A stretch of DNA of 6,654 nt from a bacterium (GCA_024278345.1 JAJRTK010000499.1:1-6654), one strand, 5' to 3'. Positions 3,603 through 6,654 are shown, counted from the first letter of the stretch. Numbers and translations: made by a program. The notes: generated from the letters alone by a model not told the origin.

Positions 3603-3643
3603 CCCGCCGCAAGTGCTCCCAACGGGTATCCACGTGAGGCGGG
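3603..3643 (+). other. Inverted repeat directly after ppiD
   Basis: Starting 2 nt after the ppiD stop, CCCGCC (3603-3608) pairs with GGCGGG (3638-3643). Inside it GTG (3613-3615) pairs with CAC (3631-3633), and CCC (3618-3620) with GGG (3624-3626). The transcript could fold into a long interrupted hairpin that may protect the mRNA 3' end or pause polymerase. There is no U-run after it (ACAGAACAAG follows), so it is not a normal intrinsic terminator. Its right half is the start of the composite repeat. Confidence 0.35.
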
Positions 3644-3920
3644 ACAGAACAAGAAAAGAACAGGGAAAACGCGGTGCCCAGAGCAGCGAGATGCGGGTCC
3701 TTGCGAACTGCCGGTGGGGGCGGGGCGAAGCACTGCCAGGGGACCGGGGAAGTGGAAAAAAATCCCCGGACACCGCCCAGGGGGGCGCGGCGTTGCCCGA
3801 GGACAAATTGTTTGCCCGGCGACCATTTCCCGCTTTGCCTCGATACCCCGCCGAGCGAAGCGAGAGTCGCCGAAGGCGACCACGGAGTCGCCGGAGCGGA
3901 GCGTAAGCGTAGCGTAGAAC
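3624..3920 (+). repeat. Composite hairpin-rich interspersed repeat, copy 1
   Basis: Copy 1 shares separate modules, in the same orientation, with the block at 6262-6654. Module A (3624-3651) matches 6415-6442 at 26 of 28 positions. A 12-mer CGGGTCCTTGCG (3694-3705) recurs at 6508-6519. Module B (3713-3744) matches 6528-6559 at 29 of 32 positions, and both copies then have a GGGG...CCCCGG hairpin (here 3746-3750 with 3763-3767) and end in CACC. Module C (3850-3871) matches 6371-6392 at 20 of 22 positions. Module C ends in one arm of a perfect GTCGCC-GAA-GGCGAC hairpin (3866-3880). The block is non-coding: open frames across it are repeat-driven and unrelated to known proteins. No transposase, target duplication or clean element ends are visible, so the element type is unknown. 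Confidence 0.8.
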
Positions 3921-4010
3921 ATGACCGGCGGCTATCCGGAGCCTCCGCAGGGTTCTAGGGCCGGAGGCCCAGGGGCTGCTCTTGAATTGAAGACGCCAGC
4001 GATGTCCGAG

Positions 4011-4025
4011 GCCGACGGGGTCGGC
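4011..4025 (+). other. Short perfect hairpin upstream of the helicase-associated gene
   Basis: GCCGAC (4011-4016) pairs with GTCGGC (4020-4025) around a GGG loop, and TTGTT follows. It lies about 40 nt before the ATG at 4066. The T-tract is too short and interrupted for a confident terminator. It could be the end of a read-through transcript from ppiD or a leader element of the next gene. No convincing -35/-10 pair was found between the repeat block and the ATG. Confidence 0.25.
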
Positions 4026-4065
4026 TTGTTCGGTTCGCCGGCCCGCACCACCGAGGGGAAGCCTG

Positions 4066-5616
4066 ATGTCGCCCCAACAGCCGCAAAAGGTGGACGGCCT
4101 CAAGTGCCCACCCAACCGTTGTCCACCCTTCAACTCCACCTTCTTGCCCAAAGGCCCTCTGCCCGATGTCGCCGCGCTTCTGGCATTGGTTGAGCAAGTT
4201 CGCCCTACCCTCTTAAAATCGGGAAGGCTACCGAAGAAGTTCCTCCATCGTGCCGCGGAACGAATGGAGTGTGAGCCTCTATGGAAAGGTTGGAAACGCT
4301 ATCTCGACTTCTTGGTCACCATCTGCCTAGAGTTTGGGCTCCTGCGGATTTTTCGCCGGCAGCTCATGGTGACCTCCAAAGCAGAGTCCTGGCTGGCACG
4401 ACCGTGGCCCGACTTGATGACGGAGATCTTTCGCTGGTGGAAAGAATCCTCCGCATGGGACGAACTCTACCGAATGGCGGGAATTCGCATCGATTCCACC
4501 GGGCTCCGGAATTCACCTGCCTCCGCGCGAAGTTTCGTTCTGGAACGCCTCGGACGATTGCCGCCAAACGACTGGGTGCGGCTCCTTGATTTCGTGCGCG
4601 AGATTCAGGACGCCGAGCGCCTCTTTTACCGCCCGCTGGGAGATGAGAGAAACTGGCGCCTGGCCGCCTTGGAAGAAGCAGCGCCTCTCTTACATCTTGG
4701 AGAGGGAAACTGGTGGGAAGTCGAGGGGCGCTTGGTCGTGACGATCATCGTTGATGCCGCCTATTGGCTTGGTCTTACTGCTGTCGGGTACACTCAAAGC
4801 GGCGAAATCGGATCCATCCTCTTGACCCCCGTCGGGGCTGCTCTCCTTGGCGTCGCCGACGAGTTTCCCCGGGAAAACCACCTGAGCTGTCGCCAGATCC
4901 ACGTCCAAAGCAATTTCGATCTGCTCGTGCCTTCCAATGCCGATCTGGCTATCCGCTTCCAAGTCGCCAAATTCGCCGCTTGGAAGAAGACGGATCAGTT
5001 CTTGACTTTTCACCTGACGCGCCAGTCTGTCGTCTCGGCTTTGGCGAAGGGTGATTCCATCGACCAGTTCATCGTATTCTTAGAACGGCATTCGAGGCGA
5101 CCGCTGCCCCAGAATGTCTCCTATACGCTTCAGAATTGGGCGACCCTCTACGGGCAGATTACTTTGAGGCCCGCAATACTCCTGGAAACAAGCTCGACCG
5201 ATATTTCGGAGGAGATGCCCGTAGAGAACTCTTTGGCATTTCCCGCCAACCGATTGGGCGAAAAGCACTTTGAAGTTGAAGCTGGGGCCGTCGAGGGGCT
5301 CTTGGCCAAATTGGAGGCCATGGGCTATCTTCCAAAAATCGACCCCTCCTTGAGTAGAAAACCAAGCGAAGCCTTGCTCGCCAATGAAGAAGAACTCTAC
5401 TTCTTGCTCCTTGGCTTGGCCGTTCTTTCCGACCATGCGCCTTCATACGGATTGAGCCCCAAAGACCCAGCTTTGGAAAGCCTCTCACGGAAGCTGGCTC
5501 AACTCGGCCCCCACCAGATTCTCGACAGGGTCGCCGAAGATTACCAATCCATGAAAAAAGACAGAGCGAGACTCTTGCGGCGTGCGGCAGAGATCATCAA
5601 TCCGGAAGCTCCTTGA
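4066..5616 (+). CDS. Helicase-associated (XPB/Ssl2 N-terminal-like, Helicase_C_3) domain protein lacking a helicase motor
   Basis: The 516-residue product carries, at about 276-365, the domain that precedes the motor in bacterial XPB-type helicases (Helicase_C_3). Visible marks are the beta-rich opening HVQSNFDLLVPSN, then KFAAWKKTDQFLTFHLTRQSV and FLERHSRRPLPQNVSYTLQNWA. Before it lies a winged-helix-like segment typical of helicase-associated proteins: NWWEVEGR at 215, YWLGL at 233 and LTPVGAALLG at 253. After it comes a second small fold ending in LLAKLEAMGYLPKID. I see no Walker A, DEAD/DEAH or other superfamily-2 motif, so it is not itself a helicase. Such stand-alone proteins are known as helicase-associated-domain proteins of unknown function, probably acting on DNA or with a partner helicase. 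The ATG at 4066 has GAGGGG 7 nt upstream. The first 35 residues are Pro/Lys-rich and poorly family-like. No partner gene lies in the window. Confidence 0.85.
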   Translation: MSPQQPQKVDGLKCPPNRCPPFNSTFLPKGPLPDVAALLALVEQVRPTLLKSGRLPKKFLHRAAERMECEPLWKGWKRYLDFLVTICLEFGLLRIFRRQLMVTSKAESWLARPWPDLMTEIFRWWKESSAWDELYRMAGIRIDSTGLRNSPASARSFVLERLGRLPPNDWVRLLDFVREIQDAERLFYRPLGDERNWRLAALEEAAPLLHLGEGNWWEVEGRLVVTIIVDAAYWLGLTAVGYTQSGEIGSILLTPVGAALLGVADEFPRENHLSCRQIHVQSNFDLLVPSNADLAIRFQVAKFAAWKKTDQFLTFHLTRQSVVSALAKGDSIDQFIVFLERHSRRPLPQNVSYTLQNWATLYGQITLRPAILLETSSTDISEEMPVENSLAFPANRLGEKHFEVEAGAVEGLLAKLEAMGYLPKIDPSLSRKPSEALLANEEELYFLLLGLAVLSDHAPSYGLSPKDPALESLSRKLAQLGPHQILDRVAEDYQSMKKDRARLLRRAAEIINPEAP

Positions 5617-5688
5617 TTCAGAAAGCCTTTTGTTGACTTATGGCCGCCGCCAACGAGGAGGGCTCGGGAAAAATTGTGTAATCTGGGA

Positions 5689-5717: not shown

Positions 5718-5719
5718 AA

Positions 5720-5765
5720 CCCCCTAGCGGTGGTTCGCGCCGGAGTAGCGGCGAGGGGGCTGTCG
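5720..5765 (+). other. Structured tRNA leader with duplicated acceptor-strand sequence
   Basis: CCCCCT (5720-5725) pairs with AGGGGG (5754-5759), extended past an A.G mismatch by GC/GC pairs. An inner stem GGTG (5729-5732) with CGCC (5738-5741) closes on a GTTCG loop. The 3' strand runs into GGGGCTGTCG (5756-5765), a 9-of-10 copy of the tRNA 5' end GGGGCTGTAG (5777-5786), 21 nt upstream of it. The transcription start may fall within the first C-run, which would weaken the outer stem. Confidence 0.45.
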
Positions 5766-5776
5766 TTTGTTTGAGT

Positions 5777-5852
5777 GGGGCTGTAGCTCAGTTGGGAGAG
5801 CGCTTGAATGGCATTCAAGAGGTCGACGGTTCGATTCCGTTCAGCTCCACCA
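5777..5852 (+). tRNA. tRNA-Ala (anticodon GGC)
   Basis: A complete 76-nt cloverleaf with encoded CCA. Acceptor 5777-5783 pairs with 5842-5848 (one G.U). The D stem is 5786-5789 with 5798-5801. The anticodon stem CTTGA/TCAAG (5803-5807, 5815-5819) encloses loop ATGGCAT with anticodon GGC at 5810-5812. The T stem is 5825-5829 with 5837-5841 and the loop is TTCGATT. Discriminator A is at 5849 and CCA at 5850-5852. A wobble G.U pair at acceptor position 3-70 (5779 with 5846) is the classic alanine identity element. The GGC isoacceptor reads GCC and GCU codons. It stands alone rather than in an rRNA operon, with its own promoter upstream and a short T-run (5853-5857) directly after. Confidence 0.98.
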
Positions 5853-6261
5853 TTTTTGTTTGCGGCGACGACTTCGTCGCAGCAACTATGAGATGCACCA
5901 CAGCCTAACCGCTGGCGAGTAGCCATAAGAATCTCTTTCCCAGATGACTTGCGCCCCGGTCGGCTTTTTGGCCGAGCGTGATCGTGCGTCCCATTTCACT
6001 TTCCCTTCGTGCCAAACTAGCTTCGCTTGAGGTGTCAACGAAACCTGCAATAACCAGACTTGATGGAGCTTGAAGTCTGCCTCAAAGCACGGAGTTATTC
6101 TCTTTTTTTGGGGCGCATCACGGCTAGTCAGAGATCGAAAGGGTGGCACGCTGACCTCCTCCCACGTTCCATGCCGATCAGTTCGTCGTAACGGCAGGTT
6201 GGGAATTGGGGAGGTTGTCATTCTTTTGGCCACCCAAAAATAGCACGCAGCGCGCAAAGTT
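5853..6261. other. Intergenic region after the tRNA, no confident gene
   Basis: T5 (5853-5857) follows the tRNA directly, then a perfect hairpin GCGACG-ACTT-CGTCGC (5865-5880) without a U-tract. A second stem TCGGC/GCCGA around TTTTTG lies at 5960-5975. On the minus strand a frame is open from 6335 to 5886 (149 codons, TTG start). Its middle part reads like ordinary protein (CFEADFKLHQVWLLQVSL, LVWHEGKVKWDARSRSAKKP), but I recognise no family, there is no good start or Shine-Dalgarno, and its N-terminal third runs into repeat DNA. No promoter-gene pair is apparent on either strand. Confidence 0.5.
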
Positions 6262-6654
6262 GTGGGTGGGGAACGGCGGAACCGTCCACCGGATGCTTCC
6301 TCTTCTCCGCTTTCTCCCGTTGCCTCTCGTTGCAACCGATCCTAGCGATCCCCCTCGGCCAAGGTCTGATGCCGAGCATAGCGAGAGTCGCCTATGCCGG
6401 TGACCGAACTTCGAGGGTATCCACGCAAGGCGGGACAGAACAGAAAAAAAAGGAAAACGCATAGCGTACGAAAACGTGGGTGGGGAACTCGTTGCTTTTC
6501 ATTGCAACGGGTCCTTGCGCGCTCCCTGGTGGGTGCAGGGCGAAGCCCTGCCAGGGGACGGGGGATGGAATCCCCGGACCACCTACGGGTAACGCGCGGC
6601 GTGACCCGCCGAGCGATAGCGAGGCGTTGCCCGGACGCTTGCGATTCCACAGTC
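6262..6654 (+). repeat. Composite hairpin-rich interspersed repeat, copy 2, running to the window edge
   Basis: It carries the same modules as 3624-3920 in the same orientation but a different arrangement: module C at 6371-6392, before module A (6415-6442), then the 12-mer (6508-6519), module B (6528-6583) and a diverged C-like piece (6604-6626, ACCCGCCGAGCGATAGCGAG). Perfect hairpins are GCAGGGC-GAA-GCCCTGC (6535-6551) and GGGGAT-GGA-ATCCCC (6561-6575). The block also has an internal duplication absent from copy 1: the 13-mer GTGGGTGGGGAAC at 6262-6274 and 6476-6488, and a GTTGC...GCAAC hairpin unit at 6318-6342 and 6490-6514. No coding capacity is credible. The right end may lie beyond the window. 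Confidence 0.8.

What the first reader, a model, noticed from the sequence alone, without database searches (positions are those of the whole stretch)
3624..6654. Modular composite repeat with shuffled module order
Two non-coding blocks share at least three near-identical modules (A 26/28, B 29/32, C 20/22) plus a 12-mer, separated by unrelated spacers of different length. Module C follows A and B in copy 1 but precedes A in copy 2, with a diverged C-like piece after B. This mosaic build suggests repeat units that spread and recombine piecewise, rather than simple copies of one element. I do not recognise the family.
Basis: partly seen in the sequence, partly recalled or inferred. Interest (0 to 1): 0.6.

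Follow-up and report, generated by a model that had tools for sequence, protein, structure and literature searches.

The report
Mosaic jumping-DNA family with unnamed transposase
The two repeat blocks are copies of a short non-coding mobile DNA family, present in well over a hundred mosaic copies in this bacterium, whose ends match those of transposons carrying a protein known so far only as a "family of unknown function", which therefore looks like an unrecognised transposase.

Summary
The repeats are real. They are two members of a large MITE (miniature inverted-repeat transposable element) family. Each element starts and ends with GGGTATCCACGCAAGGCGGGACA. The family makes exact 8- or 9-bp target duplications (21 of 58 pairs; about 0.02 expected). 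This genome holds 167 strict ends against 0 for a control pattern. Window copy 1 is 3624-3848 (decayed, no duplication); copy 2 starts at 6415 and is cut off by the contig end. Modules A and B keep the same order in both copies. Module C lies outside both elements, so the "shuffled order" is flanking sequence. The mosaic idea is otherwise right: 53 complete copies show 39 module combinations, and sequence types of different modules are nearly independent (r 0.01-0.34) while halves of one module agree (r 0.81-0.93). The same ends bound DUF6399 (PF19936) genes or remnants in this genome, in Pseudomonadota and on cyanobacterial plasmids, once with perfect ends and an exact 8-bp duplication. DUF6399 has an N-terminal HTH, a weak rve match and invariant D-D-E residues, so it is probably the transposase of an insertion-sequence family not named in the papers I could search. 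In passing: a 104-bp repeat sits inside these MITE ends at about 20 of 27 sites.

The parts
3624..3848 (+). MITE copy 1, complete but decayed, 225 bp, no target duplication
   Evidence: facing ends at 16/20 or better; internal modules match the family
   Evidence: pattern match with 0 mismatches
3826..3848 (-). right terminal inverted repeat of copy 1, decayed (TTTCCCGCTTTGCCTCGATACCC)
3713..3750 (+). internal hairpin module B in copy 1
6415..6654 (+). MITE copy 2, 240 of about 270 bp; the last 30 bp are cut off by the contig end
   Evidence: 97% identical to the complete copy C439:2252-2521, which has the 9-bp duplication CGGCCCGGA
   Evidence: pattern match with 0 mismatches
6490..6511 (+). 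block hairpin CGTTGC..GCAACGGG (block type 2) in copy 2
   Evidence: sequence; family alignment
6528..6565 (+). internal hairpin module B in copy 2, running into hairpin D (GGGGGATGGAATCCCC)
   Evidence: lies past the right end at 3848
   Evidence: lies before the left end at 6415
6228..6267 (+). probable remnant of a third MITE interior, without ends
   Evidence: 25 similar stretches in sampled contigs, resembles AAAACGCGCAGCGCACAAAAATGTGGGTGGGGAAC of complete copies

Best explanation
The two blocks are members of one family of MITEs, about 170-450 bp long. SHOWN: 23-bp terminal inverted repeats, 8-9 bp target duplications, high copy number, a fixed order of hairpin modules, and near-independent assortment of module types between copies. 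SHOWN BY ASSOCIATION: the same terminal repeat bounds or abuts genes of DUF6399 (PF19936) in this genome and in other phyla. INFERRED: DUF6399 is a DDE transposase that recognises these ends and moves the MITEs in trans, leaving 8-9 bp duplications; in this genome only remnants of the gene were found. INFERRED: the mosaic arises because many similar dispersed copies exchange internal hairpin blocks by gene conversion or template switching, while the ends stay under selection for recognition.
For: 167 strict ends vs 0 control; 263 ends vs 1 control in 120 contigs; exact 8-bp (16) or 9-bp (5) duplications in 58 pairs vs about 0.02 by shuffled pairing. Mosaic: 39 combinations in 53 copies, all four combinations for every module pair; Mantel r 0.01-0.34 between modules vs 0.81-0.93 within modules; window copy 2 vs C439: 5 of 7 differences fall in the 30 bp around hairpin D. 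Transposase: ends enclose a 536-aa DUF6399 gene in L112; DUF6399 remnants abut the same ends in the own genome at C188, C390 and C507; Crinalium plasmid gene between perfect ends with duplication CGTTTTCT; Thiodictyon gene between other inverted repeats with duplication GTCCAACC; HTH and weak rve match; D143, D197, E450 invariant in four homologues.
Against: No intact autonomous copy was found in this genome. No named transposase family matches above its cut-off, and the single-sequence structure model is too poor to show an RNase H fold. Pairs in the Pseudomonadota set rarely keep duplications (2 of 18 at up to one mismatch). One full-length DUF6399 gene (L228) has no such ends nearby. Contigs were chosen because they held hits, and module limits were set after seeing the alignment. 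Contig breaks at repeats limit the view.
Confidence: 0.82

Rival explanations
1. The family is a MITE, but it is mobilised by a different transposase. DUF6399 is a passenger or accessory protein that happens to lie between the same ends.
For: Only remnants of DUF6399 are in this genome, and no catalytic activity is known. The Crinalium element carries a second small gene of unknown function.
Against: DUF6399 is the only large gene between the ends in L112, and the association recurs in several phyla. Thiodictyon DUF6399 has different ends but the same 8-bp duplication. The invariant D-D-E set and rve match fit a transposase.
Confidence: 0.12
2. The repeats are REP/BIME-like palindromic repeats moved by a REP-associated tyrosine transposase (RAYT); the terminal repeats are one more palindrome.
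For: The interior is a string of hairpins, and the genome has one RAYT-like gene.
Against: Clear terminal inverted repeats with 8-9 bp target duplications, which single-strand Y1 transposition does not make. Most modules occur near these ends (for example B 124 of 132, F 65 of 66).
Confidence: 0.03
3. The mosaic is not recombination: it comes from repeated independent loss of blocks and point mutation from one full-length ancestor.
For: Block E presence or absence could be repeated loss, and some blocks are deleted cleanly in single copies.
Against: Left end, block and right end come in distinct sequence types, not just present or absent, and these are combined in all ways. Distances between modules are nearly uncorrelated while halves of one module agree.
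Confidence: 0.08
4. Assembly artefact: chimeric contig ends at repeats make false copies.
For: The genome is a fragmented draft of 550 contigs and many copies lie at contig ends.
Against: Many complete copies lie inside contigs with unique flanks and exact target duplications; the mosaic test used complete copies only.
Confidence: 0.01

Closest known systems
Bacterial MITEs (Correia/NEMIS, RUP, ERIC; review PMC2229807; MITEAba12, PMC6382973)
   Same: Short, non-coding, many copies, terminal inverted repeats, target duplication, stable hairpins, mostly between genes, presumed to be moved in trans.
   Different: Longer (about 170-450 bp), GC-rich, 8-9 bp rather than TA duplications, and the interior is a fixed-order string of hairpin modules that assort between copies. 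The likely partner is DUF6399, not a named IS family.
DDE insertion sequences with about 8-bp duplications (IS66, ISL3, IS256, IS1595; from own knowledge)
   Same: Terminal inverted repeats beginning with G, 8-9 bp duplication, one transposase-like gene with D-D-E residues.
   Different: The protein matches only DUF6399 and no Pfam or NCBIfam transposase family above its cut-off.
Bacterial interspersed mosaic elements (BIME) / REP with RAYT (PMC2817692, PMC3733652)
   Same: Mosaic build from short palindromes, high copy number outside genes.
   Different: BIMEs have no terminal inverted repeats or target duplications of this kind; here module order is fixed between two ends.

Membership tests
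MITE | terminal inverted repeats at both ends | tested here: met
   263 ends vs 1 control; 58 facing pairs with usable flanks
MITE | target-site duplication | tested here: met
   21 of 58 exact 8 or 9 bp, about 0.02 expected
MITE | short, no transposase gene, many copies | tested here: met
   mostly 168-450 bp; 167 strict ends genome-wide
MITE | ends shared with a coding element in the same genome | tested here: met
   DUF6399 remnants next to the same ends at C188, C390 and C507; no intact copy found
MITE | moved in trans by that transposase | not testable with these tools
   needs a transposition assay
DDE transposase (for DUF6399) | conserved D-D-E residues | tested here: met
   D143, D197 and E450 invariant in four homologues 29-42% identical to the query
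DDE transposase (for DUF6399) | RNase H-like fold | tested here: inconclusive
   weak rve match, E = 4e-4 and under the curated cut-off; structure model mean pLDDT 41
DDE transposase (for DUF6399) | gene bounded by inverted repeats and a target duplication | tested here: met
   Crinalium CGTTTTCT and Thiodictyon GTCCAACC; L112 and L087 have ends but no shown duplication
Named IS family (Pfam or NCBIfam) | match to a named transposase model above its cut-off | tested here: not met
Named IS family (ISfinder) | match to an ISfinder entry | not testable with these tools
   ISfinder is not held; no held paper mentions DUF6399 or prints six strings of the end sequence
REP/BIME | free-standing short palindromes, no terminal repeats or target duplications | tested here: not met
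   modules mostly near ends, with duplications

The most novel reading that the evidence does not exclude
DUF6399 defines an unrecognised family of insertion sequences shared across several phyla. Its MITEs evolve by near-free exchange of hairpin blocks between fixed ends, so that most copies are new combinations, and a second small element uses those ends as its preferred landing site.
Probability: 0.55. Interest if true: 0.62.

Novelty: new variant of a known kind. Interest (0 to 1): 0.5.

Why it matters
It gives a likely function, transposase, to a conserved protein family that databases list as unknown, together with the DNA ends it should act on, so it can be tested directly. The MITE copies also form a clear natural record of module-by-module recombination in a bacterial genome, with sequence types of different modules almost unlinked although they lie within 270 bp.

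Tried and rejected
Shuffled module order: rejected, because C lies outside the elements. Structured RNA: Rfam found only the tRNA in the window, and most stems are invariant rather than covarying. REP/BIME: rejected on the terminal repeats and duplications. Virus link: no match to the ends or the protein in viral contigs, and none in phages for the Crinalium protein. Structure of DUF6399 from a single sequence: uninformative, so no fold search was made. Solved structures with the DUF6399 profile: only weak matches, mostly to the HTH part. Literature: no held paper mentions DUF6399 or PF19936 or prints six strings of the end sequence. The MITE DNA was not found in the 7 phylum relatives or in the plasmid collection.

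Full report
OBSERVATION. Module A (3624 / 6415), the 12-mer (3694 / 6508) and B (3713 / 6528) keep the same order in both blocks. Copy 1 lies between a SurA/PPIase gene and a gene with a Helicase_C_3 domain; copy 2 lies downstream of a tRNA gene. The window is the whole of contig C444 of a 6.06-Mb draft genome in 550 contigs, 87.9% complete, from a phylum with only 8 genomes in the collection.

WHAT IT IS. A search of the genome with the second half of the window found dozens of further copies. In many of them the first bases of module A recur in reverse orientation just past the far end. Module A is therefore one end of a pair of terminal inverted repeats, GGGTATCCACGCAAGGCGGGACA. The strict pattern occurs 167 times in the genome and the reversed control never. 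In 120 fetched contig stretches (1.27 Mb, chosen because they held hits, so not a random sample), 263 ends score at least 16/20 against 1 for the control. Of 58 facing pairs with usable flanks, 16 have an exact 8-bp and 5 an exact 9-bp duplication at the two borders; random pairing of flanks gives about 0.02. Element lengths run mostly from 168 to 450 bp. This is the anatomy of a MITE family. Copy 1 is 3624-3848, with a decayed right end and no duplication. Copy 2 begins at 6415 and is cut 30 bp short of its end by the contig. Its near-twin in contig C439 (97% identical over the shared part) is complete and has the duplication CGGCCCGGA.

MODULE C AND ORDER. Module C lies outside both elements, 1 bp after copy 1 and 22 bp before copy 2 (22-nt core). 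At 20/22 or better it occurs only at these two places in the sampled contigs, with weaker look-alikes elsewhere. The C-like piece after B is a different module (F) inside copy 2.

MOSAIC. Between the ends most copies carry a string of GC-rich hairpins in a fixed order: an A-rich left end of three types, a block of three types, hairpin B, hairpin D, block E (absent, one of two forms, or both), piece F and a right end of three types. Among 53 complete copies there are 39 distinct combinations, counting unclassified states, and all four combinations occur for at least one pair of types in every pair of modules. On an alignment of 29 copies, distances in one module hardly predict distances in another (Mantel r 0.01 to 0.34), while the two halves of one module agree closely (r 0.81 to 0.93). 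The strongest links are E-right (0.34) and left-right (0.27). Module limits were set after looking at the alignment, so the exact numbers are indicative. Copy 2 and C439 show the pattern in one pair: 7 differences over 240 bp, 5 of them within about 30 bp around hairpin D. The complete element folds far better than shuffled DNA (z -9.5, which includes pairing of the two ends). Covariation is limited: 2 of 46 pairs, mainly D. Exchange by gene conversion or template switching among many similar copies is the simplest mechanism; it is inferred, not shown.

THE LIKELY TRANSPOSASE. The single Chloroflexi hit looks like a repetitive coding sequence that matches by chance. In L112 the two ends enclose a 536-aa gene of Pfam DUF6399, 'family of unknown function'. 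In the window's own genome DUF6399 remnants lie next to the same ends: the one in C188 stops about 25 bp before TGTCCCGCCTTAAGTGAATACCC, C390 has an internally deleted 832-bp copy with a MITE piece in it, and C507 has another piece. Further DUF6399 fragments abut such ends in Crenothrix, in another Pseudomonadota MAG (G044) and in G276, a genome outside this phylum. On plasmids, the Crinalium DUF6399 gene lies between perfect copies of the end with the 8-bp duplication CGTTTTCT, and an Acaryochloris gene between diverged copies without one. The Thiodictyon gene has different ends, GGCCTTGATCAT, but again an 8-bp duplication, GTCCAACC. DUF6399 is rare: 3 of 386 sampled genomes, this one included.

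THE PROTEIN. DUF6399 proteins have an N-terminal helix-turn-helix and a weak rve (integrase core) match. The query and three full-length homologues (29-42% identical to it) share invariant D143 (DETF), D197 (SD) and E450 (VEGRNG), as expected of a DDE transposase with a helical insert before the last residue. No named transposase family matches above its cut-off, and a single-sequence structure model was too poor to use. The transposase role is therefore inferred from position, ends, duplications and residues.

LIMITS. No intact autonomous copy was found in this genome. Pairs of ends in the other genomes rarely keep duplications (2 of 18 at up to one mismatch), which may reflect age or exchange of ends between copies. 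One full-length DUF6399 gene (L228) has no such ends nearby. Empty sites lie in an open frame of 150 aa or more in 30 of 55 cases against 90% of random places, so insertions are under-represented in genes, though open frames are only a proxy for genes. The organism could not be named. ISfinder was not available; the held papers do not mention DUF6399 or the end sequence.

A NESTED ELEMENT. A 104-bp repeat (38 matches genome-wide, 0 control) is inserted inside the MITE end, after GGGTATCCAC(G/T/C)TA and before AGGCGGGACA or a variant, at about 20 of 27 distinct places, counted by eye and including two in the opposite orientation. Most other sites also end in TA. It has a hairpin at its left end and sits in tandem at some places. 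The only Y1-type transposase found in the genome, RAYT-like though under the NCBIfam cut-off, lies about 600 bp from one tandem pair in C390. A link is suggested, not tested.

COMPARISON. Known bacterial MITEs (PMC2229807, PMC6382973) share the terminal repeats, duplications, lack of genes and hairpin content. This family differs in its 8-9 bp duplications, its GC-rich string of assorting hairpin blocks and its likely partner. BIMEs are also mosaics of palindromes (PMC2817692), but lack the terminal repeats and duplications.

VERDICT. A new MITE family whose copies are true mosaics of hairpin blocks, most likely moved by DUF6399, which would be the transposase of an insertion-sequence family not named in the literature I could search.

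Noticed in passing
L064:2717-2820, L069:11444, L161:11682 and others (C507, C124, C390): A 104-bp repeat (CCATGAAAGTACATGG...ATGCTCGTTA) is inserted inside the MITE end at about 20 of 27 distinct places, often at the same base, sometimes in tandem or in the opposite orientation.
   Followed up: partly
L268:1012-1737 (C390:22510-23235): The only Y1-type transposase found in the genome resembles REP-associated tyrosine transposases (E 1.4e-18, under the cut-off) and lies about 600 bp from a tandem pair of the 104-bp repeat; it may be its partner.
   Followed up: partly
window 867-917: Another interspersed repeat (GCCTTCCGCTCCCATCGCTCGCGGCCGCTCCC...), about 30 similar stretches in the sampled contigs, unrelated to the MITE.
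   Followed up: no
window 3940-3985: A further repeat (GGAGCCTCCGCAGGGTTCTAGGGCCGGAGGCCCAGGGGC), about 38 similar stretches in the sampled contigs, just upstream of the Helicase_C_3 gene.
   Followed up: no
L092:1474-2775: In Crenothrix the same kind of end recurs every 193 bp in a tandem array of about seven units.
   Followed up: no
L081-L114 (mostly A14_bin-2326): MITEs there have the same ends but quite different internal palindromes (GTAGGGGCGGTTCGCGAACCGCCCCTAC, GGGAGCGCCGGCGTCCCCGCCGGC), as if the ends pick up different hairpins in each host.
   Followed up: no
L234:956-1405: The Crinalium element carries a second gene (149 aa) of unknown function beside DUF6399 inside the same ends.
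   Followed up: partly
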